Shown here one piece after another: positions 17,336 to 60,258 of a DNA stretch of 64,000 nucleotides (positions are counted from its first letter, which is position 1; each line of letters starts with the position of its first letter). The notes beneath the pieces were generated by a model. It saw nothing but the letters and a program-made list of their open reading frames with translations, ran no database searches and had not been told where the DNA came from. A program made the translations under genes and the position numbers. Source of the stretch: Pocillopora verrucosa (Eukaryota > Cnidaria > Anthozoa > Scleractinia > Pocilloporidae). The stretch covers positions 18,943,670 to 19,007,669 of the forward strand of contig NC_089321.1 of assembly GCF_036669915.1 (NCBI RefSeq), read 5' to 3'.

Positions 17336-17365
17336 ATGGCGGATGAGTGCAGCAAGAGTAAGTAG
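17336..17365 (+). promoter_or_regulatory. Short upstream ORF overlapping the start of copy B
   Basis: An ATG at 17336, 7 bases before the main ATG and in another frame, opens a 9-codon frame that ends in TAG at 17363-17365, inside the main coding region. Scanning ribosomes could be diverted. The segment also holds a donor-like AGTAAGTAG, so an alternative first exon cannot be excluded. Confidence 0.45.
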
Positions 17366-39144: not shown

Positions 39145-40782
39145 ATGGAAAAATGCCCGAAGGATTCAAAAATGTCCTCTGAGAGACTTTGTGTCAATGA
39201 TGAAGAAGGAGATGAGAATTCAAAACATCGCTTCGATTGTAAAATTAACCGAAAGCGACTGGTGTCCAAACTATTTTACCTGTTCTACTTCTCGGCTTTT
39301 GGATCGCTGTGGCCTTATCTATCATTGTATTTTAAACAGTTGTTCCTATCACCGCGACAGCTTGGTATTCTTGTGGCAGTTCGGTCGCTTGTTCAATTTG
39401 TTTTTACGCCTGTTTGGGGAGCCCTTGCGGATCGCTTCAATAAAAGTAAATTTGTTTTATTATTAGGATTGTCAGCTTGGCTATTGTCAACATTTTCATT
39501 GGCAATAATACCGATAGGAGAACAACCGAAAGCCTGTTATGAGATGAACTCTTTGTCTTTGTCATTATTCCAAAATGGCTCTACTACACTGACTAACTTC
39601 ACCGAGGTAATATCGCGAAATCACCAATCTAACGACGAAATTGTTCATGACCACACTCGCTCTTATGAATCTATTTTTGGAACCAGCAAATATCTTCCGT
39701 GGGCCTTAAGCTTTTTCTCAAATGACTACGAGCCTGAGAAGTCGACTAAACTCAAAGAGGACACTTTTCCGAATCTACAATATTACCCATCACCTGAGAA
39801 AATATCCGACTCCTCTCGATTGTTCATTTTCATGGTTTGTGTTATAGTAATTGGACAGATTTTTGCATCACCGACGCAGTGTTTGGCAGATACAGCCACT
39901 CTGCAGATCCTCGCCGAAGATAGCCGTGAATACGGCAAGCAGGCTTTTTGGGGATCAGTTGGTTATGGTATGACAGCTTTCATCGTTGGTACATCGATAA
40001 GTGGACGGAGAACCCCTAATCCTTGTAGCAAGGAAATGGACATTAATTATATTCCGTGTTTTTATGTTTTTGGAGTTTTCATGGTGACTGCATTGATCGT
40101 AGCAAGTCGTTTTAAATTTAAGCCCGTTGATCACACACAATGCAAGGAAACAGCCATAGGAGGACTAAGAGTGCTGAAGAAATTTGATTACGCGTTTTTT
40201 CTATTCATTGTATTTTTTTGTGGCACAGCTTTTGGTTTTATACAGACGTTTCTATTTTGGCATCTTCGCGAGTTAGGGGCCCAACAAATACTGTTTGGAC
40301 TAATTATTCTATCCAACAGTACTGCAGAAGTAGTAGTATATCTACTGTCAGAGCGACTGTTACGAAACATTGGACATTTCCGGGTGATGTACCTCGGACT
40401 CCTATGCTACGCTCTGCGATTCTTCTACTATTCTTATTGTAGCAGACCGTGGCTTTTTTTGCCTATCGAATTTATTCAAGGTGTAACCACTGCAGCTGTT
40501 TGGTCCTCATTTGTGTCTCATGTTGGTGCGGAGCCTGGCGTGGCAACAACGCTTCAGGGTCTCGTTAATGGATTTTACACCGGTCTTGGTTACGCTAGTG
40601 GCGGCCTCTTGGGAGGTGTGATGGTTCATGAATTTGGTACCAGCACTGCCTTTCTAGTCTTTGGAGAATTAAGCTTGATAGTCCTTTTCGTTTTCATCAT
40701 AGTAAATAATGTTCGCCAAACAGAGAAGAGCAGTGATATAACTTTTAAAACCGTATCCAAAGCAGATGAATTTGAAGAGTAG
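39145..40782 (+). CDS. MFSD6-like major facilitator protein, copy G (single exon, 545 aa)
   Basis: An intronless frame; ATG 39145 is the first methionine (upstream only TTG), giving 545 residues. TM1 region LFYLFYFSAFGSLWPYLSLY, FKQLFLSPRQLGILVAVRSL, and signature PVWGALADRFNKSK, the most canonical of the array. A ~110-residue loop carries NGS and NFT sequons. TM4 is QIFASPTQCLADTATLQIL, then YGKQAFWGSVGYGMTAFIVG, FIQTFLFWHLRELGA and GVATTLQGLVNGFYTGLGYASGG. The last member of the array and the only other one on plus besides copy B. Substrate unknown. Confidence 0.9.
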   Translation: MEKCPKDSKMSSERLCVNDEEGDENSKHRFDCKINRKRLVSKLFYLFYFSAFGSLWPYLSLYFKQLFLSPRQLGILVAVRSLVQFVFTPVWGALADRFNKSKFVLLLGLSAWLLSTFSLAIIPIGEQPKACYEMNSLSLSLFQNGSTTLTNFTEVISRNHQSNDEIVHDHTRSYESIFGTSKYLPWALSFFSNDYEPEKSTKLKEDTFPNLQYYPSPEKISDSSRLFIFMVCVIVIGQIFASPTQCLADTATLQILAEDSREYGKQAFWGSVGYGMTAFIVGTSISGRRTPNPCSKEMDINYIPCFYVFGVFMVTALIVASRFKFKPVDHTQCKETAIGGLRVLKKFDYAFFLFIVFFCGTAFGFIQTFLFWHLRELGAQQILFGLIILSNSTAEVVVYLLSERLLRNIGHFRVMYLGLLCYALRFFYYSYCSRPWLFLPIEFIQGVTTAAVWSSFVSHVGAEPGVATTLQGLVNGFYTGLGYASGGLLGGVMVHEFGTSTAFLVFGELSLIVLFVFIIVNNVRQTEKSSDITFKTVSKADEFEE

Positions 40783-41728: not shown

Positions 41729-41734
41729 TTTATT
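41729..41734 (-). terminator. Polyadenylation signal overlapping the TSP1 stop codon
   Basis: AATAAA on minus begins inside the TAA stop of the TSP1 exon (TATAATAAATGG). The coding end and the signal overlap, which predicts a very short 3' UTR if this signal is used. Confidence 0.5.
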
Positions 41735-42001
41735 ATACTGATGGCCTGTAAATATGACTTCTGTCCTCTGCCATTTCACTTAACGTGCGCTCTAGGTTTA
41801 CTTTCTTTGTTTCAGTGGATTTACAGCTGTTAAGGTGACAGAGTCGAACCTTGATACTCTTGCCGGTACAGTTCTGTCCGTGACCTGAAGGAAGATGAAT
41901 CATGCACCTGCGTTTGGAATAAGTTAATCCTCCACCACAAGTTGTCGTACAATGTGACCACTTGGACCATTCTGACCATCGCTCACCATCCTCAGAGCTG
42001 T
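41733..42001 (-). CDS. Thrombospondin type-1 repeat terminal exon (partial gene)
   Basis: The exon starts after the acceptor CCTGCCTACAG in phase 1 and runs to TAA at 41735-41733. It translates to SSEDGERWSEWSKWSHC, TTTCGGGLTYSKRRC and a further four-cysteine-spaced segment. There are six cysteines in TSP1 order, the WxxWxxW motif (a C-mannosylation context) and CTTTC (the CxxTC O-fucosylation context), followed by a ~29-residue charged tail. TSP1 domains are extracellular and normally bounded by phase-1 introns, as here. No signal-peptide exon was found between this exon and 43737. It may be the last exon of a longer gene to the right or an alternative 3' exon. The domain call is strong; the gene structure is incomplete. 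Confidence 0.8.
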
Positions 42002-43736
42002 CTGTAGGCAGGATAAAAAACCACCATGATCATGGTCTCTCCTCGTAACACTTAATTCTGACTGCCATTTTAGTAATTTCAAAACGATTAAGGTTTAAGG
42101 TCTTTAGTACCGGAGGAACCGTGCTAAGAACCATTATGAATGTTTCCGAGAGCTACAGAATTACATGGATTGATAGATAACCGATGTTACGGATGAATCT
42201 GACTCGAGGAGAGTCAAACTGATTTCTCATCTATTTTTTCCAACTCGATAGGACCACAGGCTATCGTTTGTAGCCTCGATGGTCAGGCTATCCTATTACT
42301 CTCCATTTAAAATAACTAGCGGTTTAAAAGCTCAGCTGGACATTTTGTACGCACGGAAGCGATCAGACGAAACTGACAAACTGGTTGAATTTTTTCTACA
42401 TTAGTGGTATTACCATTTACCCTTACGCAGAGCACTTTTTTATGAAACTCGAAGTATCATTCTTGGGTTGATCAAAACACGTCCATGTCGTTGCCCCTTT
42501 GCTGCACAGGAATTCGGACGGTCAAAGAGCTCACTTCACACTTGTGAACTATTTAACAGAAGCAGCTAATAGTCAGAGTAGCTTCGAGTGAGCGGATCAC
42601 CAAAACACATTAAAGTCACGTTATTTTCAGAGTCACATCATTGATAATGCCACATTACCTCCGGCCTCGACCCGATTAACTTTTGATACGATTAGTTTTT
42701 TAGTAAAAGCAAGTTGGTCGGTAGAGGCTCAATATTTCCATAATATCTCGTAACAGTTAATGGTACTGTAACAATAGAACGAGAAATGGCGATCATTGTG
42801 CATAGTAAAGCAGATTGAAGTGGAGCAGCAGCTAATAGTCATTGATAAAAGATGAAGATAAAAAAATCTTTGGCTGCAAAGATAAAGTTAACAGTGGGTC
42901 TTAAGATTCGGTGGTCAGGTACTTGGACAGTGGGTTTGTAGAAGACCCACTGAGACCAAGTCAAGAACAAGTGCAATCTCGCTATTCTGTAGAGTTTCGA
43001 AGGAATTCTCTTTCGGATAGGTTCCTTAGTCGCACCACGTTGGTCTTTATGTTGAAAAAGTATTGCATTAACACTACATATAATGGCTTTGATCGTTATA
43101 CGTTTCGAAGTAACCTAAGTGTTTTATCCGGTCCATATATGAATGGGGATGGGGGGGGGGGGGGGGGGAGAAGGGAGTCAATTTCAGTCGTTTTCCGGTC
43201 TTTTACTTCTGTCATTTGTGACATATATTTGTCGTGTTTGTTTGTTTGATTTTGATGATCTCCAGCTTTCGTTCCAGCTGCAGCGTTCTCCGGCTTTGGC
43301 TGAGACCGCTATCTGATAATTAACTGATACATAACCGTTATCGGCAGAAGACATAATGGTCTCCTTCGCTCAATTTTAGAGCAGGGGTGAACATAAAAAT
43401 CAGTTACTGGTTCAGCTATGGAGTCGCCAAGTTACATCGTTTTTATTGAAACTGTGAAGCAAAATAACAAGGGGAGCGCCCATGAGACTAGCCCGTAAGA
43501 TTCTCCCGCGAACGATACTCCTTTAGTTACGCTGCATTGATAGTATTTTTACAGACTAGACGTAACCAACGCATTTGTATAGGTAATCACATGATTTCGA
43601 GTTTAATTTGGGATAAATCAGTTTCCACTCCATTTTAGGTTTACTCTAAAGCCAGTGCAGGTTCGAGAATGCTTGTGTTGCTAATAGATTTCTTTGAAAG
43701 TTACGACAGAGTTTACAGTTTAGTCTAATAAAATTA
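42002..43736. other. Spacer between the TSP1 exon and the next secreted-protein gene
   Basis: No coding exon recognised. It includes an 18-G homopolymer at 43151-43168. Confidence 0.35.
43151..43168 (+). repeat. Poly-G tract (18 G)
   Basis: An uninterrupted run of 18 G preceded by GGGGAT and followed by AGAAGGG. It could form G-quadruplex DNA and is prone to length error in sequencing. Confidence 0.9.
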
Positions 43737-45280
43737 TTACAAACCTCCGTTGTTATGGTTATGTTTCGTACGCTCCTCCTCTGGTTTTTTAGCGATCTTT
43801 GCATCTTGAGCTGTCAATTTCTTCACAAGCTTCGTCAGAGTCTTTGCGGCATCGGCTAGATTTGCTGCCATTTCAGCACTTTTTAGCATACTCTTGTATC
43901 TCAGTTCTTCCTTTTTAGTATCTTCTATTGTAATCTTAGTCTCGTCGGTGTCGCTGGACTGCTGATTATGGCTCTGAATTTGGGTTGCGTTATTCTTCTT
44001 AGTTGCCACACCTTCCGAAAGTAAGCTGGACAATTTTTCACCTCCTCGAACTCTAGTTTTAAGGATCTGTTTTACCAAAGGCGCATACTTTGACGGCGTA
44101 GATGTGTGCTGCGTTTTATCGAGTAAGTTTAATCTTTTTATTGCTCTTATTCGAGAGGAAATTAGGCCAGATAGCGTAGGAATGAGAGCACCTTGCATGG
44201 CAGCATAATTATTTTGGTAATTGTTGAATTCTGGTACCATGGTCCTCACCGGTGGATCCTGTTCTTCTCTAGTGTCATCGTTTAGGTATTCTTCGTTCGA
44301 TTGCTCATCATAAGTAGCTTGGCCATCATTGTCCTTACGGGCCACGTTGTTATCGTCATTATTGTCAACATCATTGTAATCTGCCATCTCATTCCCGAAC
44401 AAAGACGAGTAGGCTGTGTTGTAAGTGTTGTCTTCAGTGGGTAACCCTTGATACGGTTCATCGTTGGGATCCATTTGGTGACCATCATCTATTAGAGGGT
44501 AATTCTGGTCCTCTTGATTTTCACCATTTACGAAGACAGTATTTGGCGACTTTAAAGGACTGAGCTCATTTGTTCCGTCCAACTGCAGAATTTGTGACGG
44601 CATCATATTGTTGCGAACGTAGCTATCGGGCGGAAGGTTTGTCAGCGGAACAACAACTTGTTGCTTTTTTACTTTGTCAAAGGTTTGATAGGCTGCCGTA
44701 TGCTTTTTCTTTCCTACATTGAATTTAGAAGAAATGGTTAGGAATCTACCAGATTGACATGACAAGGCAGTTCAAAGCAATAGAGGACTTTCTAATATTT
44801 ACGGGTGAGACGTAATGACAGGGAAACTAGCTTAACTTAATGCTTCCGGTCAACCGAATCAATCTTTGCCGCGTAAGCCAAAACAAGAACTTTGGTGGGG
44901 TTGTGCAAGGCGAGGTCAGTAGACAAAGTAAGCACGTCCAATAATGGAAGTTAGGAAACTCATCGCGATCGCTGAAACCCTAATAACTTCGAACTTAAGC
45001 TTTGAATTCAAATAGTAAGGAAATACTTGAAATAAACAAATGACTAAATCAAATTTGACCAACTAACAAAATACTTCATAACAGTATCATTCTGTCAAAA
45101 AAAGTGAAAAGTTCTTCAGTGGGTGGAGGTTTCTCCTTTATAAACTTAAGTCATTCAAAGCATGTTCAGTACAAAGTGATGGAATGTATTGTATTAGATC
45201 GTACCTCTACTTACTAAACTTCCACACTTCAAAATGGAACACGTGAGTAAAAAGAGGAAAATTACTCTGGCATTCACCAT
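43737..45280 (-). CDS. Predicted secreted protein, 348 aa (signal exon + one body exon)
   Basis: Exon 1 at 45280..45211 encodes a signal peptide (MVNARVIFLFLLTCSILKCG). Exon 2 at 44713..43737 starts after TTCAATGTAG in phase 1. The donor A|GTAGAG is weak, but the adjacent stronger GTAAGT would break the frame; with A|GTAGAG the total is exactly 349 codons. The mature protein starts basic (RKKKHTAAYQTFDK). Its centre is very acidic and Asn/Asp/Tyr-rich (about residues 120-180, with runs such as DNDDNNVARKDNDG), and its C-terminus is Lys/Ala-rich and likely helical (AEMAANLADAAKTLTKL). No known domain. Acidic secreted proteins can bind calcium or mineral, but that is speculation here. Confidence 0.62.
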
Positions 45281-47187
45281 GACCACTGTGCTTTACTTCA
45301 CCTAAAAGTGTACAGAAAAAAAAGTACATTCCAGATTTAAAAAATTGCACACGGAATAACACGAAATGTGATGCCTCTATTTCAATCTCTCAAAAAGGGT
45401 ATCCTCTATATTATTAACTCATTTCCAATGGGCATCTTGTTTTCTTCTTTGAAGAAAAAATTATGATTAATGATCACAGTCAAAGCAAAGGCGATGGTTG
45501 ATTGAAGTATTTTTTATATTCCCAATCTGGAAAAAAGAGAAATTGCTGAATGGGACCAGCCCGCTTTAGTAAGGTTATTATTGACTGTTGTCAAAATCAC
45601 GGTGAAATTTCTTATCCATATCCTAAGCTTGACGTATGTTTCCTTCATAGAATAACAAGAGAAATTATCGCGGGATGTGCAAGCTATGACTTTGAAAGTC
45701 AAAAGCAAAGCATGTAAGAAAGTTTATTTTTAAATGTCACGGCCCTAACACAGGTGGACGGAGCTTTTAAACAACTTAACAGCTCATTATCCTAACTTAG
45801 GATTCGGAAAAAATTAACCATAGAAGATGATTAATTATGCTATTATACACAGTTTGGTTGAAAACTGAAAGTTGTCCCAAATCTGAAATTTCCATAACGA
45901 ACACACTTTTATATAACTTATAAACAAATTTAGCCAATTTATTAGATTGAAACTTAATCAAAACAGCGTGCCACAACCGTTACATAAGATCATAGTAAAG
46001 TTAGCATGGATCACATACTTACGCAAAAATGATATGTTTAGAAGTAGTCGTCCTTAACTAAGACGAGTGCTCGCAGCATAAGTCGATGATAGCGCTTGTT
46101 TGATCAACCCATTAGAAAGAGGCCAAATCGAACAAAGAAATTAATTATGCTTGAAGCAACCTGTTTTGTTTTTAATTGCGCAGCTTGTGTAACGGGTACC
46201 ATCTATAGCAAGCCTAGATTAGTTTTGGAGACTAATACCTTGAAATGTCTAATGAGTAAACAAACATTTGCCACTCGCTCTTGTAAAAAGAAAAGTCCTA
46301 TTTTACTCAGCAAAATCAGGGAATTTGGTTCGGGTTGGGAATGGGTCGTAGACACTCGTAGCTGTCCTTATGATGTCAAGCTTCCACCTTTTTATTCTAA
46401 TTTTTAATTTTGCCTTTCATGCCCCGAATTTATTTTTGCAAATGATCTACTAAACACCCGAACCCAGAGATTGGAAAGGACTCATGATGACTGGAAATGA
46501 ATTCCACCGAGACCAGTTCAAAACTGTTTGGCTGTGAATAAATTAACACTGCTCAGGGTCTGAATCTTAAAGGTGGCCTCATTTTGGTTTCAGACCTTTT
46601 TCTAAAAATCTCCTCAACTAGTAAACTCGTATATGTTACACTTCTGTATTTCCACTAACTTGACGTCCGTCGACGCAAGAGTGGTATTCTAAAACTTTAA
46701 TCCAACAATTCATCAATTTGATGCTAACATCTAATTGTGAAAGAAATTCTTGAAAGGGAATTCTAATCGCAAGTCAATGAACATTGAGAAATAGTTACGG
46801 CAGACTAAGTTTTGAAATTGAACTCTATTGTTCAGTTGTAGTTATCAAGAACGTCTTGATTGGGAGGGTTAAGTTGTACTCAAAACAAGTCTGTTAGAGC
46901 CACACTGATATGGATTTATTGATCTTTATTATTATCAATTTATTACAAGCGATACATCAAGAAACGACAATTAGAAAAAGGAACGAACAAATGGAAAAAA
47001 TATAGATGAAATGTTTCATTTCGCACAATCAACATAACGGCTAACGGTTTTTTTTTGGTTCTAAGATGTTTCCACAGTGTAATATTAAACGTAATCACAT
47101 GATTACTACGATTATCGACACAGGTTTGCCTGTGAGTATACTTAGCTTATTCTCGCCCAGTAACTTAAAAATGCACCCTGTTAACTA
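45281..47187. other. Spacer within the secreted-protein block
   Basis: No exon recognised on either strand. A plus-strand frame at 46096-46407 starts with TTG and has no motif. Confidence 0.3.
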
Positions 47188-47812
47188 TTATGTAACATTG
47201 TTATTGCTGTTAGTAGCTGTCCCAGTTTTCCCACGGGTGGATTTTCCTTTTTTGTTCTTATAACTTAATAGTTTGCTATACGCCTTGGATTGCTTCAGCA
47301 TTCTTTTCAGCGGAGTCAGGCTTATCTTGAAACGTTGAATACGAAGGCCCAATGGAATAACTTTGCGTTTCAACGGAGAGCGAAAAATTGACCGACTGAA
47401 AGGAAATACTATTGGTATTCGCTTTGTTAGTATTAATTTACGCCAAGTTTTAAGCAGCCGACGAACATCAACCTTTCTGCCCTGTCCAGGTCTCTTCGAT
47501 GCAGCTGTAGTTGAAAGAAAAATAAAACCTTCGTGAATGCTAGGCTGGCATGATGATCAACTAAATCTCTCAAGGGCCACCTCGACATAATTACAAACAC
47601 ATTAGAATGGCGTCGGTTTTTAGCATTTTTTAACCCCTATAATTTTTTCGTTTTGTTTCTTAAAGATTAAAAAGCTCAGTGTTTACTCTTATACTCACGT
47701 ATTGAACTTCTTTCGACAAACATGGTGGATGGGCCACTGTCACCACGCAAATCAACGCTGTGGTCAAATGAGTAAGGATACCAGCCCCTTAGTGGTTGAA
47801 AGCCCCGGTGTC
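47188..47812 (-). CDS. Two-exon basic protein, signal exon not located
   Basis: Exon 47812..47699 (after acceptor TTTTCTTTTGAG, donor ATAC|GTGAGTAT) and exon 47504..47188 (after TTTCTTTCAACTACAG) keep one frame and both enter in phase 1. They encode about 143 residues: a Gly/Tyr/Pro/Ser segment (HRGFQPLRGWYPYSFDHS), then a strongly Arg/Lys-rich, Cys-free C-terminus (SKRPGQGRKVDVRRLLKTW, SPLKRKVIPLGLRIQRF) ending in TNSNNNVT. A phase-1 donor must precede it. The nearest upstream one is the signal exon 49009..48934; joining it would give a 168-residue secreted protein that skips the 48532..48000 body. Alternatively a first exon was missed. No family recognised. Confidence 0.55.
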
Positions 47813-47999
47813 CTCAAAAGAAAAGAATAGATTATAGATTTTTCAATGTTGAATTCGTACAAATGGCAGACTGCAGACCACGATTAATTTTAAATTTTTA
47901 TGATAATTAAATTGAACGTTAGAAGGAGTTTCATTGCTTAAAAGGGTAGCACAGCTGTAAGTCACCCATCTTTACTCATTTCATGTAATGTGAATTTCA

Positions 48000-49009
48000 T
48001 TAACAATAACACTGATCTCTATACTCAACAAATGCATCAGTGACCCACTCACCAAAGCCGTTATATCCGTATCCATAACCAGCTGGAATATGTCCAAGAG
48101 GTGAACCATACCAGAGACCACGGCCAAAACGGGAATCATACCCATACCCCAAGGTATGCCTCAGAGGTTGGCGCAAAGGACTGTGCACAAACCGATGTGG
48201 GAAAGGAGGACCGTGTCTGTAGAAGAGACGGTGCCCAATGGGACCAATTGGTCCGTAATGTTGCGGTAGATGAACAGGGTAAATACCATGATATCCACGG
48301 TAAACAGGAATGTTCAGAGGATGGCGATGCATTAAGTGGTGGATGTATCCTCCAAATGCTGTGGGTACTCCGTTAGGCATCAAGGTCATATGGTGTGCTG
48401 AGGGGAGTAAGGCACCAACACTCGGTGGTGCTGCTAGAGTTACAATTTCATGTTTCTTGTTTCTAGAGGCTAGATTAGGCTTAACAGTTTTATGAGGGAT
48501 ATGAAGTCTCTTGGATTGATAACCATGCTTTCCTGCATACGAAAGAAACAATGAAGCATAAAAAAATACGTTTTGTACGAAGGTTTTGAGGTCACGAATT
48601 CTTTTTTACCATAGCATACTTAAATTGCAAGTAATTTGTGAAACCAAGTTATTGACAAAAACAATAATTGTAATCGATTTTGGCTTCATCTTGCCTTTTT
48701 CTTTCTGTTCTTAGTGTTTTACGAATTCTGTGAGTGTAGTATGCAATCGAAAATCCATATGTGATAGAACAAAAAAGTTTTTGTTCCCCGCATAATCCAA
48801 TTTTCCATGCGAGCATGAGAGCTGACTTAGAAATTGAAGGAATATTGAACATTTCAAAACCTTAAGCCATGGAAAATGTGTATGAACACTGACACAGAAA
48901 ATTAACGGACTGAAATTGTCGAAGAATACTTACTTGCTATATGCTTTGGCTCAATAGTCGTTGAAATCAGAATAATCAAAGCGAGGTAGAGTGGACTATT
49001 ATTCTTCAT
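48000..49009 (-). CDS. Predicted secreted His/Pro/Gly/Tyr-rich protein, 202 aa
   Basis: Exon 1 at 49009..48934 encodes a signal peptide (MKNNSPLYLALIILISTTIE) and ends in phase 1 at A|GTAAGTATTC. Exon 2 at 48532..48000 starts after TTTCGTATGCAG. The joined frame is exactly 203 codons including stop. The mature protein begins with a basic segment (RKHGYQSKRLHIPHKT) and is then dominated by His, Pro, Gly, Tyr and Leu (HGIYPVHLPQHYGPIGPIGH, YGYDSRFGRGLWYGSP), ending QCYC with its only two cysteines. Such compositions occur in structural or metal-binding matrix proteins, but no family match is recognised. It shares layout and style with the 206-aa protein at 52663-53727. Confidence 0.72.
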
Positions 49010-49540
49010 TTTTCCTGATAAACTTGTTTTCTGATCAAATTTATTCGGAGTTTGTCTTTATATCTGCCACGCAAAATGTCATAAAAAGGACTCTTTAATA
49101 GGATGACAATACCATGCTATTGTTTTCCTTTGAGGTCCAAAATAGTCATGGTTAAACCCCAAATTAACAATAACTATTACGGGTGACAGGTAAACTTAAA
49201 GATTCCGTAAGTCAAACATGAGGACTTTTGTTTAATATCATTTTGATGTTAATCGTCATTATGGCTGGACAGTTTGTCGCTAACATAGACCAGCTCGCCA
49301 TAATTTGTAACTATCATTATTAGTCGTGACCTTATTCAATTCGTGTAAGGATGAACATTTTTTTTTGTTTTGAGAAAAAGTCTTCTTGATGCAAATCAAA
49401 TTAAAAGTGCTTAAGGATTGCTTTCATGCAACGAAATATTTAAGGTTTCGTAATTATTTCACGGGTTACCTCTCTTTTAACGCTTATCATGCTTCAGTAT
49501 GTGCAAGCACCCTAGCACTAATATACGTAAGTTTCGATTT
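49010..49540. other. Spacer upstream of the 202-aa gene
   Basis: Non-coding; probably includes its promoter. No element assigned. Confidence 0.3.
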
Positions 49541-49805
49541 TTGCAAAACTTTGCTATAAGAATCATCTTAGGACTTAAGATATATGACCACATTAATTAG
49601 TAATAGTTTCGAATCACTTGGATGGCTCAATATCAACGACAAATCAGAGGTCAACGATGCTGTAATGGTCCATAAATGCCCTAACAAACTAGCTCCTAAC
49701 CACCTATGTGATCAGTTACAAACTGGTCATCAGTAAGCTCCAGAAAAACACCATCTATATATATGATTTAAAAATTTCACGTGGTCGCTTGGCAACCAGA
49801 CATCC
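49541..49805 (+). mobile_element. LINE reverse-transcriptase C-terminal remnant (plus strand)
   Basis: Broken frames give LQNFAIRIILGLKIYDHI, then LGWLNINDKSEVNDAVMVHK and CPNKLAPNHLCDQL, separated by stops and a frameshift. This is the typical C-terminus of non-LTR retrotransposon ORF2 (LQ..A.RI..., LGWL...R..., DA.M..KC.N.LAP.YL). Only the tail of the ORF remains and it is not functional. Confidence 0.7.
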
Positions 49806-50283
49806 CTTTTTCTGTTCACAAATGAGTAAGATACAGGAATACTTTACTGAGAAATAAGTTTATTACTTTGACCGGCTTATATTTTATTACGTCCTTGCTG
49901 CAAATGCTTAAAATTATGAAATTATAGCTACATGGAAATTTTGGTCGATTTCTGGGTCAACGGTCAAGCTTTGCTAATAAATTAGTAATGAGTTTTAATT
50001 TGTTAAACTCTTGGAAAGTTGAGGACATGAAAAATAGGGCTACCATAGCACATGCGTGTGGTCCGACATAAAGAATTTCCGACAATTATTGAAAGACATG
50101 GTCAGAATATCTATCGGAAAGCATCAGATTTCTATCCTCCTAATTGGCCAATTGCGTATCAAAATACATAAAAACCCAGCAGCGGCTAACGTCGCTGCAT
50201 CTATTCGAAACCTGTGAGATTTTTACAAGATTTTCAAGATTACAAAGTCGAAGTGCTCGATTAAGTTGGATCACAAAGAATGG

Positions 50284-50960
50284 TCATATAGAAGTATCCA
50301 ATAACTTTTTATTCTGAATGGGGCTAGGGTTCAGCTGCTGCAAATGTGTGCTACCAGTGGCATAATCATGGTTCCCAGATACAAAAGACAGTGCGAAATT
50401 AGATTGATTTTTTATTTGCGAAATGTTCATAAAATAATCGACACGTACGTAGCTTAATTATGGCAGGAAGGTTAATTAGCCCAAGGTTTACATAATGGGG
50501 AGTAATATGGTCACGAAATGGTGCATTGTTTATGATTCTTACAACTGGTCTTGTAGCTTTACCACTGAACTGAGACAATGGAGCTTCATAATTATTTCCT
50601 CATAACATGCAGCCATGTGTTGGATGAGGATATACAAGTACATTATAAACACTTACAAGAGACTGGCTTTTTACATTTCGTTTCAGTTTTTCAATTTTGT
50701 TTACACTTTTTCTGGCTAGGTTTAATTACCAATTTAATCAATATAGACGCATCATAACCACCTTCGTCAATGTAGCTTCAGTCATATCATCTGCTAATTC
50801 AACCAAGTGGTCGGTTGTAGTTTTTCCAGCTCTAAGGCCAAACTGGTTCGGTACTGGAATATTTCCAGTCGTGAAATGAAATAATAACTGATTAAGAATG
50901 CATATTTCTTAAAATTTTACTTAGAGCTGAAAGGACTGATATAGGGCTTTAGTTTTTACA
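50284..50960 (-). mobile_element. LINE reverse-transcriptase remnant (minus strand)
   Basis: On minus, pieces in shifting frames read SPISVLSALSKILRNMHS (the RPIS block), NQFGLRAGKTTTDHLVELAD (the QFGFR.G.ST.. block), and downstream RPVVRIINNAPFRDHITPHY, LINLPAIIKLRTCRLFYEHF and NFALSFVSGNHDYATGS, all typical of LINE ORF2. Stops and deletions, including loss of the catalytic region between the first and later blocks, show a dead copy. It belongs to a different fragment type and opposite strand from 49541-49805. Confidence 0.75.
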
Positions 50961-51552
50961 CAAGGAGCGAGAGCCTTGCTTGAAATAGAATTTCTAAATT
51001 GCCTAGAAATATGCTTTGCTTGTATGTATGTATCGCCACCGTGTATTCAAATGTTGCCTTTAGTTCATGTTGTGTGTGTATGCAGTTTCTATCTAAACAC
51101 AATTTTTCGGTACGATACCAAAACATTATATCGTAAACTTGTTTACATTTCTCTTTTGAAAGCAGTCGTGAATACTTGTTTCTGCATTTTATTAAAACAT
51201 AGCGGGAGAACATCCTGAGATTTCTCTTGTGATTCCTCTCGTCGATTTTCTGTGCAGGGAAGTGTTCTTCTAGGGACGCACTTTCTTTAGAGTTTTACTT
51301 AACAGCAGTAGAAGGCAGTAAAAAGTAATTAGAGGTCAGTGAGAAGTAGAAGGAGAAGGAGTAGCCGCTGGCCGCAGAAAGTAAGAATAAAGAAAAAAAC
51401 AAGAAGAATCTCGAAGCCTATCCATAACGAGAGTAGTTCTAAAGCTAGTTTCTCCCATCATTGTGAACCAGAATATTTGGTTGAGGACTCACTGACATAT
51501 AGTTTTCATGAACATGATATTTTATCTGAAGGCGCTTATTAATGTCCACGAG
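50961..51552. other. Spacer, no gene supported
   Basis: AT-rich; frames on both strands lack motifs. Confidence 0.3.
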
Positions 51553-51734
51553 CTACTGCTTTTGTACTTTCTTCTTCGCAGATTTTAGTTTTATTGCTTC
51601 CATTAGTTTCTGTCGTTCAAGTTCAGTTTCCTCTCTAATCTCTTCCATTTTATGAGCGACATCCTCAATTGGGGAGCTGTGTAAATTCGCTGAATTGTCT
51701 AAAATTTGATCTTCCACGTTGGTAACATCAACGG
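51553..51734 (-). CDS. Short terminal exon, charged and probably helical (signal exon not located)
   Basis: The exon begins after the acceptor CTTTATCTCCTGCAG in phase 1 and ends at TAG 51555-51553. It encodes ~60 residues: VDVTNVEDQILDNSANLHSS, then a Glu/Lys-rich stretch (HKMEEIREETELERQKLMEA) likely to be a helix or coiled coil, ending KKKVQKQ. Splice context, phase and composition support a real exon. Joining it to the signal exon 53727..53649 keeps the frame and would give 86 residues, which would make it an alternative 3' exon of that gene. A separate undetected first exon is equally possible. No family recognised. Confidence 0.5.
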
Positions 51735-52662
51735 CTGCAGGAGATAAAGAGAAAATCTGTCAAGACTCTGTCGCTTAAAATGTGCAAATCATTGAGTTTT
51801 GTTCGAGCGTTTGCTTTATCGCCTTGTATATTAGAACCAACGGGTGAAAATAGCGCGACATACAATTTAATGAATAATGGTGCACGAAACTGATTAAAGC
51901 TTGATGTAAAATATCTGAGAGACTACGAACTCCCTGATTGGTCAAAAGCCTATCATTTATTGCACTAGTAAACCCCTAGTTGTTTTACAAACGCTGTAGA
52001 CTCAATTCTCTACAGGTTTACTAGCGTAATAACTCACTTGGGATGTTGGGTGAACACTCAAAAAGTTTGTAAATCACTTCCCTCTTGCTCGTGATTTAAA
52101 AACTCTTATCACGTAAACTGTGGTGTTATACAGGGATTTCCGGCCCTGAGAAAAGCTGTAACAACACACGTGAAAAAATATCGTATAAATTTGTAATCAT
52201 GATTCAACGCATTTTTCCATCTTAAGAGTTAGCGCTAACACACTCTTCGGTTGTTATTCGGGAATAATCGATTCATTTATTTTCATTCATCAATGAAGTC
52301 GGCTTTCCTTCTCAGTAAAGGGCTTTTGTGTTTATCTAATAAACAAAATAATACATGGTTGCTCGTAGATATGGAATTTCTCTTCTCGTGTTCAACTCGA
52401 CATCTCACTCGTTCGTTGCGCTCACTCGTAAGCTATCAAAACACACGAAGAGAAATTCTATATCTACGCGCGCCCATGTATTATTCTCTATTTCTCGTGC
52501 TCTCCCAATATCCAGCGTGGATTATTATGGCGGTAAACCGATACAGTGTGCGGTCTATTACTTAGATACCCAACACATGATCGGTGGAAAAAAAAAAAAC
52601 TTTCCGCGTTTATGACTCAAAATTTCGAACAGATAAAGATGATAGCCATTGCAATAAATAAC
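51735..52662. other. Spacer containing an inverted repeat
   Basis: No coding exon found; searched on minus for a signal-peptide exon without success. It contains the inverted repeat 52347-52485. Confidence 0.35.
52347..52485. repeat. Inverted-repeat element (139 bp)
   Basis: The left arm AATAATACATGG...GTAGATATGGAATTTCTCTTC pairs with the right arm GAAGAGAAATTCTATATCTAC...CCATGTATTATT. The centre holds CTCACTCGTTCGTTGCGCTC. Non-coding foldback or MITE-like element. Confidence 0.75.
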
Positions 52663-53727
52663 TTAGTTTCTTATAGCATTCTTACGATACATTCTTGCCC
52701 CATGCCCTCCAAGAAACATTGGTCCAAGATGATTATGTCTGTACATTTCAACAGCGTGATTCATATAGAATCCTGGATACTGTGGAGGTATTATCGGTCG
52801 GGGAATCATAGTCCCAGTGACAGGCTCCTGATACATCCCGTCATTTGGATCTGCTAGGAAAACTGGTCCTGAAGCCTGCATATGAGGCCAGTGAGTATAA
52901 CCATGATGAAGTCCCCAGGGTATCATGGGATAGTAGCTCTGATGAGGGTAAAATCCACGAAATCTAGCGTAGGAGCCGTAGGGAAACAAATGTGAGATGT
53001 GAGGTCCAGGAAACGACGGATAGCCGCGATGCAGAGGACTTGGTACACCGGTAGGTCCAACAAGCAACTCATTTTCTGCATTTGCAGGAGGAAGGTAAGG
53101 TCCTTCAAGTATTGATGTCGCCACGGGCGGAACAGCGACGACTTCTTGTCGTCGGTATAAACTTGGATGAGACTTTAGAAGTTGCTTGGGTCTTTTTAGT
53201 TCTCCTTGAATTTAGGTGATAATCACAGTTGGAAACGCTGGCTCAAAATTTGATCAGTTATGAGTTGTGAGTTAAAACCCCGAAACTCACGTGGTTCAGA
53301 GAAATTCTTAGCTTTCAGCAAAGCAAGATTTCTTCCTAATCAGACCACGTTTCTTGATCATTTTCCCGATGCTTACGTCAAATTGTTTGCTTAATCGAAA
53401 GAATAATGAGCAAGCTTCCAAAAGGGACCCAGTTTAAGCCCTATTATCTCCACCATACCTGTTTTTCGGAACGTGGCATAGAAACAAGCTTTGATTGTTA
53501 TCGTCATTATTGAAACTGAATCTAAACTTACTCCGCAAAATACGAAGACTTATAACCGGCCATTTCTTCGGACCAGTGAAAAAATCACAATACACTGTGA
53601 CAACTTTTCAAATTTCTGCCTGTTATTTAGAAATGAATCTGAACTTACCTGTTGCCGGTCGAGCAAACACCTCTTGGCCAAGAACGATAACTAGAATAAG
53701 AAGTTCACGTGCAAAAGGTAAGTACAT
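52663..53727 (-). CDS. Predicted secreted Pro/Tyr/His/Gly-rich protein, 206 aa
   Basis: Exon 1 at 53727..53649 encodes a signal peptide (MYLPFARELLILVIVLGQEV, then FARPAT) and ends in phase 1 at CAG|GTAAGTTC. Exon 2 at 53204..52663 starts after AAATTCAAG. The joined length is exactly 207 codons with stop. The mature chain starts with a basic stretch (GELKRPKQLLKSHPSLYRRQ) and continues Pro/Tyr/His/Gly/Phe-rich (GYPSFPGPHISHLFPYGSYA, RFRGFYPHQSYYPMIPWG), without cysteines. Layout, basic mature N-terminus and aromatic/His/Pro body resemble the 202-aa protein at 48000-49009, suggesting divergent paralogues. Function unknown; a matrix or structural role is a guess. Confidence 0.72.
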
Positions 53728-54759
53728 AGCAAAACCGAAGTCAAAGATTTTGATTTTTTTTTTACTTTTCTTTCCTCGTAAAAATATTTCGACAACGGAA
53801 TGTAAATTAAAGACAAACGTAAAACCACATGGAGTTTTTCAAACTTAAAAAAATATTTAGTTTGTACCCGCCACCAGTAAAGTTTGTCAAAACAAACGTA
53901 AAAAATGTCAGGTTTGTACGAATAGGACCCTTTCTTTTCAAATACAACAGATAACTCAGCCACATCGTCAGATATTCGAAAGCCAGTTTGAACTCTCTTT
54001 TCTTAATACTTCTCAGATACGATGAATCTTTAAAAAAACTTCGACAAAAATTTTTTGCAGCAACAACGGCTATATTTTTTTTTCTATCCGTAAAACTATT
54101 CTATTCATAAAACTATTCTATCTACAAAACTATGCTTCGCCTTCTGAAATGACCTTTGAAATACCAAAGCCAATTTTCATCGCCCCGATTCGTTCAGATA
54201 AGTTCACAACTCTAAATCAAACGCAGTGCGTTTGCCCTCTGTGTCAGTTGTGACTACAATCTTCCCAGTTTTCTAAAGAATTGGTGATCAGTTTCAGAAA
54301 TATTTATAATGACGTATTTATTTTCTTTCATGTAGATAGATTTCTCAGAAAGGACAGCAACGGTTTTGCCTTCTTTTGTTTTCGTTCCTGAACTGAAATT
54401 CCTCTCCTTATCAGACTACACAGTGCCTTTTTGCAAGGTTTGGAAACGTACTTTCTTATCTCTTCTCGCTTGACTTGTTCAATCTTTTTATCACCCTTTC
54501 TTTGTTAAGGTTGTTATTACGAGGATGTTTGGTTACTTAAGAACAACTTATTAGATATGTCTTTATTGCACTGATACTGAGGCTACAAGTGAACAGGTGT
54601 AAATAGCTAAAATTCTGCTGTGGAAGGCGAAATTTAGGTAGAAGTTAATCGCAACTCTTCGTTTAAAGATTCATCTCACCGATTCTGTGGAGATATATTT
54701 TACGATTTTAGTATCACACAATTACTAGCAGATGTTCTGACGGTTTTAATCTTTGCAAC
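53728..54759. other. Spacer within the secreted-protein block
   Basis: AT-rich; a short AAAACTATTCTAT-type repeat near 54090-54130. No exon recognised. Confidence 0.35.
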
Positions 54760-55602
54760 TTATCCTCTTGGGTGTTCAACAGCAATCAGTGGAAAGAAAA
54801 TGAAAGGATCCTTAGAGTCAAAAGTATTGTCCTTGTTCAGGATCCTGTAAGCAGGGCCGGTCAAATAAGACTTTGCATTTTCCTGCGCAGTGGTTTCGTG
54901 TGGCACTCCGCGAGCATCCTTCATGATTGGAACTGTGATTAGGCCGGGCTTGACTTTCTCTGTTGAAGAGGAGGGACAAACGATGTCAAAACTTACCCTA
55001 TCGTTCATCACATGGAAGATAAAGATAATGCTCTTAATGGTTACGATGAAAACTGAACTTTTAAAATTAAAGCCAACTCATCATGATCGTCTTACAATCT
55101 AAGTTCTTTAATCACTTGTTTAGTTTAGTCGCTAATGAAGTTTGTTAGGTGTTACTGTCCCAATCAGCTGTGTTCTTAAACCATAACAGTGACAGGTTAC
55201 GCTACTTGACATAACACTTAACGATGTTTCATAGGATTCTCTTTGCCAAAACTGCCCATTACTGCTGCTTCATATTGGTATTGATATCTAACTGCGTGCA
55301 TTATCTCACTACATATATATTTGATAAAAGACAGTTCACAGTCTTATAGTCTTACAGCCTTACAGTTCTGTAAATCTTATCTTCATAGAAAATCGGCTGT
55401 AACGGTTATTTATCCGTGTTTAAGCGCAAATGAATTCGGTAAACCGAAACACAACTCGATGAAGGTCAAATTTAGAAACGAATAGTTGATCTTAAGTAAA
55501 CTTACCGGATCGTATCCTTTTTGTCGAAGGTCTTCCATTTGCAACTTTAGACGTAAGAATTATTGAAATAAGAATTACATTGCGAAATATTTGCCATCTC
55601 AT
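54760..55602 (-). CDS. Predicted small secreted protein, 98 aa
   Basis: Exon 1 at 55602..55506 encodes MRWQIFRNVILISIILTSKV plus ANGRPSTKRIRS and ends in phase 1 at CCG|GTAAGTTT. Exon 2 at 54959..54760 starts after a long pyrimidine tract (GTCCCTCCTCTTCAACAG). The join gives exactly 99 codons including stop. After the predicted signal peptide comes RPSTKRIRS, containing a dibasic KR, then a compact cysteine-free body (EKVKPGLITVPIMKDARGVP, DPFIFFPLIAVEHPRG). It could be a small matrix protein or a processed peptide precursor; neither is established. No family recognised. Confidence 0.68.
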
Positions 55603-56568
55603 TTCCTTCAAAGCTAAGTAGACTTCTGATAAAATTACCGAACTCAGCTCTGCAGAGTGAATATAGATTCACTTCGTAAATGGAGTTCAACTAATTCTTA
55701 AAAGTTTTGTAAGGTTGATCCTGCGATTGCGTGGTGTTGCTAAGTAACACTCTTACCGGTGGTTTTCACGGTTTTATTTCAACTTTTATCCATCTAGGGC
55801 TCATGTTGACATAACTGGTGAAAGCATGGTGTAATTACTCATCATGGTAAAGAAGAGTGGTAAAAAAATATATAAGTATTTCCGCCGTGGTAACTAGAGA
55901 GGCATCCAGGATAAAAAAAGATATCAACAGGAGGTTAGTGGATCGCTGTGCAAACACTTCACCAGGACATCAATTATCAAAATGCGTCAATAACAATTGT
56001 TAAACCCTCTGGTGCTCGTTATATTTTTCCTACGATACCGACAAGGAGAATTTGTTTAACAATCAAGAGCTTCTCTAATTGGCGATCTTTGTTTTCATGA
56101 ACATAATTGTTTATTCAGGGCTGATATTAGAGTCACTCTGGTGGTTAAGTGTGGAAACCAACCAATCACAGCGGAGTACAATCTTATGTTTAGGTGACAC
56201 GTACCTAGTCGACTTCTCAACTTTTGGAGTAGTCCTAGGGGTCTGCATTAGCGATCTACAGCAGAAGTGACTACAACGTGAGACACACAATAGTGTAGGC
56301 TATTATTGTTTTGGCCATCTTGATCATCTTTGACAAAAACATAAACCGAGACCTAAACGCTTTAGGTGGAACCCTTCGAACTAATTGAAACATTAAGATT
56401 TATCATTCCTAGAGCAGAGCAGATCTCAAGACTTCCACACATACTGGGGTTTTACAAAATTTGTTGTAACCGGACTAGCTTAAAACGAAATAACATTAAA
56501 ATGAAATAACAGAGTTGTGACATTATCTATATACAGAACGTCAATAGAAGCTGACAAAAACGAAAGTG
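55603..56568. other. Spacer within the secreted-protein block
   Basis: No exon recognised on either strand. Confidence 0.3.
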
Positions 56569-59062
56569 TTATCTTTCGTCAATGTCAGGGTATCTTTGTT
56601 CCCCTTCATCTTCGTCAGCATTGTAACTCTCTTCCTGCTCACGGTCCGAATGATGTGGTGGAGGCTCATCTCGTTCATCATTGTCATAGTCGGAATTATC
56701 ATCGTCATCTTCATTATCATCTTCTCCCTCATCATCCATTGGATATGGAGGTCTTGGATTCATTGATCGATAGAAAGGTAACCGCGTTTCGGTGGCGGGG
56801 AATGGTCGTGCAAAAGGTAGATATTGATTAACACGAGGAAGAAATGACGGCTTTTGAAACATAGCTGGTCCTCGATATGAAAGGGGTATAGGCCCAAGTG
56901 AAGGAGTTGTGATCACATTCTGAAGACGTTGCATAAAGTCTGTCATGTCATTGTTTTGAAAATTTTGTATTTGTGGAAATTCTTGTTGGGGCACAGGTAA
57001 TCGCGCTTTCGACTGAAGTTGAGCGATGCGATTTTCCAACTGGTCTTCAAGAAGCCACCTTTGTTTCGCAAGATTTAATTCCTGCATTTGCATTCCCTCT
57101 CCTGGCAAGACTCCCTTTTCTTCCTTTACTTGTTGCATATTTCCTGTGTTAGGAATTTGTGTCATTAGATCTCTTGAGTTCAGCATTTTATTCATGCCAC
57201 TGTTTTCCATCATACTCGAACTCCGCATACTATCAGTGTTATACAAATCAACATCTTTTCCAATGTCCGTGCTTTTCATTCGTGCGATGAAGTTAAGAAG
57301 ATCCAAATAGTTTGCGCGCTTTGCAGAGAGATCCTCTCCTTTAGTTATGGAAGATGGGCTTCTGCTGTGATCATAACTTTCTTCTATCTCTGTCTTTAAA
57401 GTCTGGCCGAACTTTTTTCTTCTAAAAGGGTGTCTCGATGATTCGTCTTGTTTATATCTTTGTTCAGCGTTGTGGGCTGATTTAGCCTTTTTTGCAACTT
57501 CGTTCAATAACCTCAGTATTGCAGCTCGGAGTTCGACGACTGTTTTATTTTTGGAAGCTTCTGATTTACCTTCGATGCTGTATATGTCGGCTTTATCGTC
57601 CTCGCCTTCCTCTTTTGATTCTAACAACTTGAGTTGTTCACTAGTTAGTTTTCTTTTGATAGCCTGAACATCTTTCGAATGATTTTGGTACAGTTTTTTT
57701 AAAAGTTTTCGGAACTGACTACCAACTACGACTTTCCTAGCGAAGTGGACATTTTGGGGATTTCTCACTAAAACATCTTTTCTAGTTGCTGGAAGAGAAA
57801 TGATCTTTGCTGCCCCGTTTAAGTCTTGTGAAGAACTTGTTGATCTTTTCTGTGTCAAAGGTTTACTGGGTGCTATTCTCCTGAAAACAAAATGATAATG
57901 GAGACTTTTGGTAATCATCATAATTGCCCTTAGCAGAGAGCTCTAACACTGAAATAAAAACCCTCAGGCTTAACTAGTGCCCCTCCCTTGGGCAAAAATG
58001 CAAAAAAAAGAAATGAAAAAATTGAAAAAAGCAGTAGATAAACTTGAGACTGATAACGGATGCTTACCCGGCCAATGTTTTTTCCATGTTTTTGCTTTCG
58101 ATTTCTGGTCTGGCTGTAACACTTCCTTTCGCTTGGAATTCCGTTTTCAAAATCATTTTCTTATTTTTCCACTCTGTTTTCATTTTTATATGTCGCCCTC
58201 CATGGATGTTCATGCATTCTGCAGAGGTGTTTATGATATGTGTTAGTCGACTTGCAGTATACCTCAATTACATGGGGCTAATCTCCTCGGTTCACGTCCT
58301 AAAGAAGATTACGAGCCGGATACAACCTAAGGTTCTACATGCATACACAAAAGATGATTACACAGTGACTTAAATTAGCAAAGCACCTGTTTTGACTTTT
58401 TAAATCAAAGGGTAAAGAAATATCTGCAGCGAGCGTGAATGAAAAGAATACTGGGCTTCAGGATACCGTTGGCTTCTCTAAAACATTTGTGTTTTAACTT
58501 CAAAACATTTCACAGCCCTCCATCTACATGAGCTTGGCTCCAAACTGCAATTGGCTCTAACACAAAGCATTTTGTCAACACCAGTGCATTCGACTCGGAG
58601 CGCTATTTAGCCAATAGGCTTTTACGCCTCCATTAAGGTAGTCCTTTTTTTTTAGGATTATTTTGTTAAGTCAGTCGAAATCCCAAATTACAAAGACTAA
58701 CGTACCTCTCAAGTCTAAAGTACGCACACACATCGGTGCGAACGTCGAGCATTAAGACACAGTCTGTTGTCAATGATATTGTAAAGAACTGGTCAGCCAA
58801 TGTTTAGTATTACCCCATATTGAGGTGAGAAGAGCAAAACAAGTGAAACAACGAGCTGAGTCAAACAATAAGCTGGCAATGACAACCCTTAGGTACTGTC
58901 ACTACTTTTTAGACAAAAGTAAGTTAAAAAGATTTAAGCAATGAAGTGTTTCGTTCTGATGCCACGACGAATATTCTTCATTTGGACAGGCTTGTACTGC
59001 TTACCTGAACCTTGGGGAAAGACACAACAGAGCATGATCCAACCAAATACGGCTGACTTCAT
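56569..59062 (-). CDS. Predicted secreted protein with acidic C-terminus, 506 aa (3 exons)
   Basis: Exons 59062..59005, 58218..58068 and 57880..56569 join in frame (phase 1, then phase 2) to exactly 507 codons with stop. Exon 1 is a signal peptide (MKSAVFGWIMLCCVFPQGS). Exon 2 adds a Lys/Met/Glu segment (CMNIHGGRHIKMKTEWKNKK). Exon 3 is Lys/Arg/Ser-rich with helical Leu/Lys/Gln stretches (QFRKLLKKLYQNHSKDVQAI; EVAKKAKSAHNAEQRYKQDE) and a Met/Gln/Asn-rich middle. It then has a Pro/Arg/Phe segment and an extreme Asp/Glu tail (GEDDNEDDDDNSDYDNDERD). All three donors and acceptors are canonical (CAG|GTAAGC, CTCTGCAG, CGG|GTAAGC, TTTTGTTTTCAG). No known domain. The acidic tail could bind calcium or basic partners; unproven. 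Confidence 0.75.
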
Positions 59063-60258
59063 TCTGTGAAAAGCTGACTTTTTCGTTTTAGAAATTTAAC
59101 TTACATTTTTAAAGCTTGGGTTCACGGCACGAGAAATCAAATATCATTTACAGCCTGCTTTTCTTCTTAAAAATTGCAACTTATTTATTATTAAAGGATA
59201 GACTGCGAAACTAAGAGACCCTGACCAGCACAGGTTAACTGCTGTTTTATTACAATTGAAGGCCCGTCCATAATGGTTGAGGCGGAGAGCACCTGCTACA
59301 CTTCTCGTTTAAATGTGACATTTAACTAAATTACCTGCTCAGCCTAAGTTTGGTGCAAGAAACTGTTTCGATGCCAAACTAATTAGCTTAGGAGTCAATA
59401 AGGTTTATGCAGAATGAACTTTAAGCGCTATTGCAAATGAATTACTAATTGTTTTTGTATAAAGTCGGCTACTAATCGTGTAAAATGTTACGAAAATGTC
59501 GTCGTGGATTGGATTTCTAAGAGATTTTTGTTTCCAGTAATTCTCTTTCCTTTCTGTAACGGAGTTTTAACACATCGGAAACTTTGTCAAAGTTTCTATT
59601 TACGCCAAGATTTACAGGTAAATGGGCGGAGATTAAGTTAGATTTATGATCGATGTATTCTCAAACCTTTATAAGTTTCCTCCCACCTATTGAAAATTTA
59701 CTTTTGTCATAGTACGCATGCCTGTCACATGTGTTGCTGAGTGAGTTCGCATCTTGTTTTCAGTTTTTTGTGGCTAAGATGGTGGCTTAAATGCTTGTTT
59801 TGTAAGAATTTGAATAAAAATGCATTACTGAACCACCCACGTCCACAATGGGAAGTAAGATCTATCTTACAGATGTATCTGCTGAGATACTGGATTGCTC
59901 GACCAGCAGAAATGCAGGTTGGTGAAGTTTCAATTTGCTAGGAATTTGGGTCGTCAAGAGTAGATCCCAACCTTTGCAACAACGGCAAAAACAGTTTCTC
60001 AATAATGCGCAGCCTTTCCTCTTGGTAACTTCATTAACGAATCAAGCTGTGTAGCAAAAGTCTGATAATCTGAAAAGCAAACAACGCCATCTTCAGACAA
60101 ATAACTTAGAACAACCGTCTGTCAGAATCTTTAACAAGGCATCACCTACGAAGAAGAAGGTACTCCGGCTTATATTTAACTTTGAAGATTGCCTATTTGG
60201 GTAATGATAAAGATCTTTCAATAGCTATGAACTTCCCTGTCTTATATCTATCATTGCA
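59063..60258. other. Flank of the 506-aa gene and 5' part of the Harbinger element
   Basis: The right part may be the start of the transposon, including an upstream transposase exon around 59741-59941, but no confident coding signal was read there. No clear terminal inverted repeat was identified. Confidence 0.3.

What the first reader, a model, noticed from the sequence alone, without database searches (positions are those of the whole stretch)
41733..59062. Block of secreted-protein genes built as signal exon plus new body, all in phase 1
Five minus-strand genes have a first exon that is essentially only a signal peptide, and every first intron is phase 1. The bodies are unrelated or very divergent low-complexity proteins (acidic, His/Pro/Tyr/Gly-rich, Met/Gln-rich). 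Every joined frame closes exactly. Uniform phase permits exchange of secretion exons and bodies, so this looks like a local generator of new secreted proteins. None is a family I recognise, apart from the TSP1 exon.
Basis: partly seen in the sequence, partly recalled or inferred. Interest (0 to 1): 0.8.

Follow-up and report, generated by a model that had tools for sequence, protein, structure and literature searches.

The report
Coral secreted disordered protein gene cluster
In a stony coral, a run of neighbouring genes for floppy secreted proteins, each led by its own export-signal exon, turns out to be old and shared among corals rather than a factory of new genes, and it may make part of the material outside the cells.

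Summary
Five minus-strand genes (G1-G5) have a signal-peptide first exon and a phase-1 first intron, and the spliced frames close. Corrections: G1 has an extra exon and a phase-2 second intron; G3-G5 have further phase-1 exons, and G5 ends in the TSP1 exon. G4 and G5 are confirmed by full-length matches on contigs shorter than their genomic spans; G1 and G3 match predicted Stylophora proteins; G2 (98 aa) has no outside support.
The 'generator of new proteins' reading is not supported. Phase-1 introns are known to be in excess beside signal peptides.
The block is larger than reported: six more predicted signal-exon/phase-1 genes follow past the window, about 117 kb in all.
Best reading: a conserved coral locus of secreted, probably disordered matrix proteins (G4 has a conserved RGD, G5 a TSP1), like vertebrate SCPP clusters in layout but not shown to be homologous. 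Skeletal use is unproven: the main text of one Stylophora skeletal-protein paper has none of the four orthologues under their LOC numbers.

The parts
59005..59062 (-). G1 exon 1, signal peptide, phase-1 donor
   Evidence: same N-terminus in predicted Stylophora protein P0022
58068..58218 (-).
   Evidence: present in P0022
56569..57880 (-). G1 exon 3: helical, Met/Gln-rich middle and acidic tail; includes stop
   Evidence: 19 family members
55506..55602 (-). G2 exon 1, signal peptide, phase 1
   Evidence: no outside support
54760..54959 (-). G2 exon 2, short body (98 aa in all); possibly a short relative of G3
   Evidence: weak colinear similarity to G3, E 0.32
53649..53727 (-). G3 exon 1, signal peptide, phase 1
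   Evidence: matching N-terminus in P0047
52686..53204 (-). G3 exon 2, His/Pro/Tyr-rich body with conserved VAVPPVATSILEGPYLPPANAEN and DPNDGMYQEPVTGT blocks, phase-1 donor
   Evidence: 14 of 14 read-through relatives (one near-identical) read on as expected for this donor and phase
51553..51734 (-). G3 exon 3, charged C-terminal helix, stop
   Evidence: sequence present in five relatives; helix in the model of Oculina orthologue P0046
48934..49009 (-). G4 exon 1, signal peptide, phase 1
   Evidence: P0001, P0002, P0004
48053..48532 (-). G4 exon 2, His/Gly/Tyr/Pro-rich body
47699..47812 (-). G4 exon 3 with conserved GWYPYSFDHSVDLRGD (RGD at residue 208)
   Evidence: RGD at this site in 4 of 4 database sequences covering the exon, one of them the near-identical P0001
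47188..47504 (-). G4 exon 4, strongly basic C-terminus, stop
   Evidence: P0001, P0002, P0004
45205..45280 (-). G5 exon 1, signal peptide, phase 1
   Evidence: P0019, P0023
43745..44713 (-). G5 exon 2, Asn/Asp-rich stretch and conserved charged C-terminal segment
   Evidence: 21 of 21 read-through relatives (one near-identical) read on as expected for this donor and phase
41733..42001 (-). G5 exon 3, TSP1 domain and conserved C-terminus, stop
   Evidence: Pfam TSP_1 36 bits vs cut-off 21.6; joined in P0019, P0023, P0033

Best explanation
This is a conserved coral locus of secreted, probably disordered proteins. Each gene has a signal-peptide exon cut by a phase-1 intron and a large body exon. 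The proteins are probably released together into an extracellular matrix, where charged chains (basic G4; the acidic tail of G1 and acidic stretch of G5, both proteins being about neutral overall) and His/Tyr/Pro/Gly-rich chains (G3, G4) assemble by weak multivalent contacts, while the G4 RGD and the G5 TSP1 link the matrix to cells. Shown: gene structures, with outside support for four of five; orthology of those four in other corals. Supported but not proven: linkage in other corals (from contig lengths), conserved splice phase (from protein frames), disorder, secretion, extension to about 117 kb (sequence only). Open: restriction to stony corals. Inferred: co-expression, matrix assembly, RGD/TSP1 adhesion, and the tissue (calicoblastic or basal ectoderm is my guess). 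Ancient tandem duplication plus divergence is a likelier origin than exon exchange.
For: Gene models; full-length support for G4 and G5. Orthologues; alignments 38-41. All 9 species-named hits among 80 proteins are Stylophora, Orbicella, Oculina or Desmophyllum. Shared contig lengths: Stylophora 699694 (G1, G3, G4, G5), Orbicella 2404511 (G3, G4), Oculina 33308145 (G3, G5), and three unnamed contigs, 1332663 (G1, G4, G5), 927228 (G1, G3, G5), 698923 (G4, G5). Splice phase: 14 of 14 (G3) and 21 of 21 (G5) read-through relatives. RGD at the exon-3 site in 4 of 4. AlphaFold of orthologues: mean pLDDT 48.7 for G3 (Oculina P0046; 165 of 236 residues under 50) and 45.1 for G1 (Stylophora P0022; 367 of 506). 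Extension past the window. RGD in four known coral skeletal proteins, read by the authors as a link to calicoblastic cells: PMC4043741, passages. Calicoblast-specific genes enriched for Hexacorallia-, Scleractinia- or species-specific genes: PMC8162421, passages.
Against: No expression or proteomic evidence places any of these proteins anywhere. The main text of a Stylophora skeletal-protein paper (PMC7115838) has no LOC number starting 1113283 or 1113284, the range of all four orthologues; it does list two 'hypothetical protein AWC38_SpisGene' entries that I could not map, and supplements could not be read. Common ancestry of the five genes is not shown: profile comparisons are null and the shared head motif is only suggestive. 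No signal-peptide predictor was run; secretion rests on hydrophobic cores. Low pLDDT with only 17 sequences agrees with disorder but does not prove it. Linkage is inferred from equal contig lengths. Conservation of the flank genes was not tested.
Confidence: 0.5

Rival explanations
1. One reading: a local generator that makes new secreted proteins by swapping signal exons and bodies through phase-1 introns.
For: All first introns phase 1; bodies show no overall homology; TSP1 exon is a classic 1-1 module (recalled).
Against: Four of five bodies are orthologous families with apparent linkage and conserved splice phase. No swapped pair seen. The TSP1 join is already present in Stylophora and Oculina. 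Phase 1 is favoured near signal peptides anyway.
Confidence: 0.06
2. A tandem-duplicated family that diverged beyond recognition except for architecture and a short head (dibasic site, then Q/H-E/Q-V/I-V...P), as in vertebrate SCPP genes. This concerns origin and can hold together with the best explanation.
Against: G3-G1 76, G4-G5 59 and G4-G1 37 of 100 shuffles as good, G4-G2 49 of 52; three of ten pairs were not reached. Whole-profile comparisons null. Among 91 pairs tested with local shuffles only R7-R9 is convincing; the next are R1-R5 3.6, G1-R7 3.5, G4-R5 3.4, and G3-G4 is not among the 14 best.
Confidence: 0.35
3. Secreted but not skeletal: mucus, mesoglea, gland-cell or settlement-adhesive proteins.
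For: No LOC number of the four orthologues in the main text of the Stylophora skeletal-protein paper. His/Tyr/Gly-rich basic chains recall adhesive and tanned secretions such as tubeworm cement or squid-beak proteins (recalled).
Against: All 9 species-named hits are stony corals, which would fit a skeleton-linked role, though 71 of 80 hits are unnamed.
Confidence: 0.35
4. Artefact: chance splice sites joining open frames.
For: G2 rests on sequence alone; donors of R1, R2 and R4 depart from consensus.
Against: Full-length G4 and G5 proteins on contigs shorter than the genomic spans; G1 and G3 in predicted Stylophora proteins.
Confidence: 0.02

Closest known systems
Vertebrate SCPP gene clusters (enamel and dentin/bone matrix genes)
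   Same: Neighbouring secreted matrix genes with a signal-peptide exon and a large variable exon, P-rich and acidic types, RGD in acidic members (PMC4373244, passages).
   Different: No homology known or tested. First introns here are phase 1; SCPP introns are phase 0 (recalled). The RGD here is in a basic protein. SxE phosphorylation motif not tested.
Coral skeletal organic matrix proteins (skeletal Asp-rich proteins, SAP, galaxin, USOMP, coadhesin and others)
   Same: Secreted, acidic to basic, low-complexity regions, some with RGD or TSP1 (PMC4043741 and PMC4890752, passages).
   Different: None of the four Stylophora orthologues appears by LOC number in the main text of PMC7115838; no sequence comparison with the known proteins was made.
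TSP1-domain secreted proteins
   Same: The last exon of G5 passes the Pfam gathering score for TSP_1.
   Different: Only one TSP1, fused to a body with no other Pfam domain.
Tandem skeletal-matrix genes in Acropora digitifera (two laminin G/EGF genes, two USOMP-1 genes)
   Same: Neighbouring secreted matrix genes, attributed to duplication (PMC4890752, passages).
   Different: Those pairs are highly similar in sequence; this block is larger and its members mostly do not resemble each other.

Membership tests
SCPP family | Descent from SPARC-like ancestor / sequence homology | not tested
   No direct comparison with SCPP proteins; Pfam found no family but TSP1 in G1-G5
SCPP family | Signal peptide encoded by an early exon, clustered genes | tested here: met
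   family feature from PMC4373244
SCPP family | Phase-0 introns (recalled) | tested here: not met
   First introns phase 1 in 11 of 11 models; the six flank models were paired with candidate phases in view
SCPP family | RGD in acidic members | tested here: not met
   RGD in G4, which is basic, and in none of G1, G2, G3, G5; among flank models and frames only in the R5 open frame
Coral skeletal organic matrix proteins | Peptides recovered from cleaned skeleton | tested here: inconclusive
   No LOC1113283xx/1113284xx in the main text of PMC7115838; two unmapped hypothetical proteins there; supplements not readable
Coral skeletal organic matrix proteins | Signal peptide / extracellular | tested here: inconclusive
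   Hydrophobic cores in all five first exons; no predictor available
TSP1 domain (G5 exon 3) | Pfam TSP_1 gathering score | tested here: met
   36 bits vs 21.6
One paralogous family G1-G5 | Detectable homology of bodies | tested here: not met
   hhalign probability 0.1-3.2% in the 5 of 6 profile pairs run, 0.3 and 0.7% for G2 against G3 and G5; head motif suggestive only

The most novel reading that the evidence does not exclude
A stony-coral counterpart of the vertebrate SCPP locus: a ~117-kb neighbourhood of at least 11 secreted disordered matrix genes, fixed early in Scleractinia, held together by shared regulation in the skeleton-forming epithelium, supplying a matrix layer that skeletal proteomics has missed.
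Probability: 0.18. Interest if true: 0.85.

Novelty: new variant of a known kind. Interest (0 to 1): 0.58.

Why it matters
A single conserved locus holding many of them, with one gene architecture, gives a defined set to test for shared expression and shared function. If it proves specific to stony corals (not tested here), it bears on how the skeleton arose. It would also be a clean comparison for the vertebrate SCPP clusters: two animal groups arriving at neighbouring genes for disordered matrix proteins, with different intron phases.

Tried and rejected
Exon-swap generator: rejected because bodies and, where readable, signal exons and splice phases are conserved by orthology. One family by overall homology: not shown. 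Shared promoter or signal-exon DNA among G1-G5: blastn gave only chance-level pieces, best E 0.056. Fold recognition: models too poor to search. Sequence search of solved structures with the G3 and G1 profiles: 0 hits, and 1 chance hit at E 0.93. Further copies of G1, G3, G4, G5 in the window plus 50 kb to the left and 80 kb to the right: no significant match but their own exons; the farther right flank was fetched later and not scanned with these profiles. Papers naming the orthologues: none by LOC number or by XP numbers that I guessed by interpolation. Papers on a coral cluster of secreted disordered genes: searches listed none that I recognised as describing this block; I read the listings, and passages only of PMC12419799 and PMC4043741 among them.

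Full report
What is there. I rebuilt the five genes from the DNA. All five first exons encode a short peptide with a hydrophobic core and end in a GT donor in phase 1. Bodies join in frame and close at a stop: G1 506 aa, G2 98 aa, G3 259 aa, G4 328 aa, G5 437 aa.

Are the models real? For G4, a database protein matches all 328 residues at 99%, longest contig 1313 bases, while the gene spans 1822 bases. For G5, a 437-aa match including TSP1 lies on a 1570-base contig against a 3548-base span. Contigs shorter than the gene imply spliced sequence. For G1 and G3, the signal exons and later exons appear in predicted Stylophora pistillata proteins (P0022, P0047); these are annotation models, and P0047 is an isoform that lacks the front of the G3 body. 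G2 has no such support and was not searched for.

Are they new? No. These counts include near-identical copies (such as P0001, P0019, P0020, P0021, P0045). Two searches used mixed alignments, and one search scored only the candidates sharing most words, so absence of a hit says little. Leaving out near-identical copies, identities run from about 36 to 87%. Only 9 of the 80 carry a species name, and all 9 are stony corals: Stylophora, Orbicella, Oculina, Desmophyllum (order checked for the last two; recalled for the others). Some blocks are nearly invariant: DPNDGMYQ in G3, NAEMAANLAEAAKTLTKLV in G5, SAKRANYLDLLNFI in G1. Sea anemones were not searched separately.

Do they stay together? Hits share contig lengths: Stylophora 699694 holds G1, G3, G4, G5; Orbicella 2404511 holds G3, G4; Oculina 33308145 holds G3, G5; three unnamed contigs hold three, three and two of the families. 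I could not read those contigs, so order and spacing are unknown. Many hits are exon-level frames that run past the splice donor. In 14 of 14 such G3 relatives the frame reads on into R-K or R-E, and in 21 of 21 G5 relatives into G-L (one near-identical copy in each set), as expected if the same donor sits in the same phase.

Phase 1. A shared phase would permit exon exchange, but phase-1 introns are known to be in excess near signal-peptide cleavage sites in human genes (PMC7259759, passages), so it is weak evidence for exchange. I saw no signal exon joined to a different body in the relatives whose N-terminus clearly shows one (P0001, P0002, P0004, P0019, P0022, P0023, P0047).

Are the five genes related to each other? 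Whole-profile comparisons say no: probabilities 1.1, 0.5, 0.2, 0.1 and 3.2% for five of the six pairs among four profiles; G1-G4 was not run. G2 against the G3 and G5 profiles gave 0.3 and 0.7%. Plain BLASTP without composition correction gave G3-G4 E 0.002 and G1-G5 E 0.007, which the strict local-shuffle test does not bear out. A short head after a dibasic site looks alike in G3, G4 and G5 (RRQEVVAV, KKHEIVTL, KKQQVVVP). Against column shuffles: G3-G4 1 of 100, G3-G2 4 of 100, G3-G5 8 of 100, but G3-G1 76, G4-G5 59, G4-G1 37 of 100 and G4-G2 49 of 52; three pairs were not reached. This is suggestive only, and I chose the region after seeing the likeness.

What does it do? G4 has 54 Lys+Arg and 8 Asp+Glu. 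G1 and G5 are about neutral overall (77 acidic to 78 basic, 58 to 57) but G1 has a long acidic tail and G5 an Asn/Asp-rich stretch. G3 and G4 are rich in Pro, Gly, His and Tyr. Cys is absent from G2-G4, 3 in G1, 8 in G5. AlphaFold gives low confidence for the G3 orthologue P0046 and the G1 orthologue P0022 (mean pLDDT 48.7 and 45.1), apart from a confident C-terminal helix in G3 and weakly predicted helices in G1; with 17 sequences each this agrees with disorder without proving it. The G4 RGD sits in the conserved block WYPYSFDHSVDLRGD in 4 of 4 database sequences that cover exon 3, one near-identical. Four known Acropora skeletal proteins also carry RGD, read by their authors as a link to calicoblastic cells (PMC4043741, passages). 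From this I infer a secreted matrix assembled by charge and aromatic contacts, tied to cells through RGD and TSP1. The tissue is a guess. Against a skeletal role: the main text of the Stylophora skeletal-protein paper PMC7115838 holds no LOC number in the range of the four orthologues, though two unmapped hypothetical proteins remain in its table and its supplements were not readable.

Compared with the known. In layout it resembles the vertebrate SCPP clusters: signal exon, large variable exon, neighbouring genes (PMC4373244, passages). It is not shown to be a member: no homology was tested or is known, first introns are phase 1 rather than 0 (phase 0 recalled), and the RGD is in a basic protein. 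I therefore call it a new variant of a known kind: a lineage-specific cluster of secreted disordered matrix genes.

Noticed in passing
Flank loci L004, L008-L010, L016, L017 (window-relative about 75-159 kb): The secreted low-complexity block continues past the window with six more predicted signal-exon/phase-1 models, including Met/Gly-rich R7 and its relative R9.
   Followed up: partly
window 4446-5360, 5593-7137, 17331-19022, 20008-21435, 27010-28704, 30223-31824, 34281-35858, 39070-40782; also L019:1404-3344 and L021:1337-3043: Array of MFS_1_like (MFSD6-like, name recalled) transporter frames on both sides of the block; Pfam was run on one window frame (34281-35858) and the two flank frames, the others are judged by eye.
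   Followed up: partly
window 12034-16155 (+): 1373-aa open frame: long Lys/His/Ser/Pro-rich stretch joined to a GDSL/SGNH hydrolase domain (Pfam PF13472, 65 bits).
   Followed up: partly
window about 60231-62525: Pieces resembling a PIF/Harbinger-type DNA transposon (recognised from memory, not tested) just upstream of G1.
   Followed up: no
L004 1808-4011 and L008 about 1292-3434: R1 and R3: near-identical inverted copies, the second split over two frames; recent duplication or two haplotypes assembled side by side.
   Followed up: no
Stylophora protein P0047 (G3 orthologue, isoform X2): Predicted isoform joins the signal exon to the DPNDGMYQEP part of exon 2, skipping the His/Pro-rich front: possible alternative splicing or a prediction error.
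   Followed up: no
window G3 residue 44, G4 residue 51, G5 residue 41: Dibasic pairs followed by Q/H-E/Q-V/I in three proteins: possible proprotein-convertase sites, which in G3 and G5 would expose an N-terminal Gln.
   Followed up: partly
L009 491-5173 (R5 open frame): 1561-aa frame with a His/Phe/Gly-rich end and an RGD; no signal exon found, and its end may run past a splice site.
   Followed up: no
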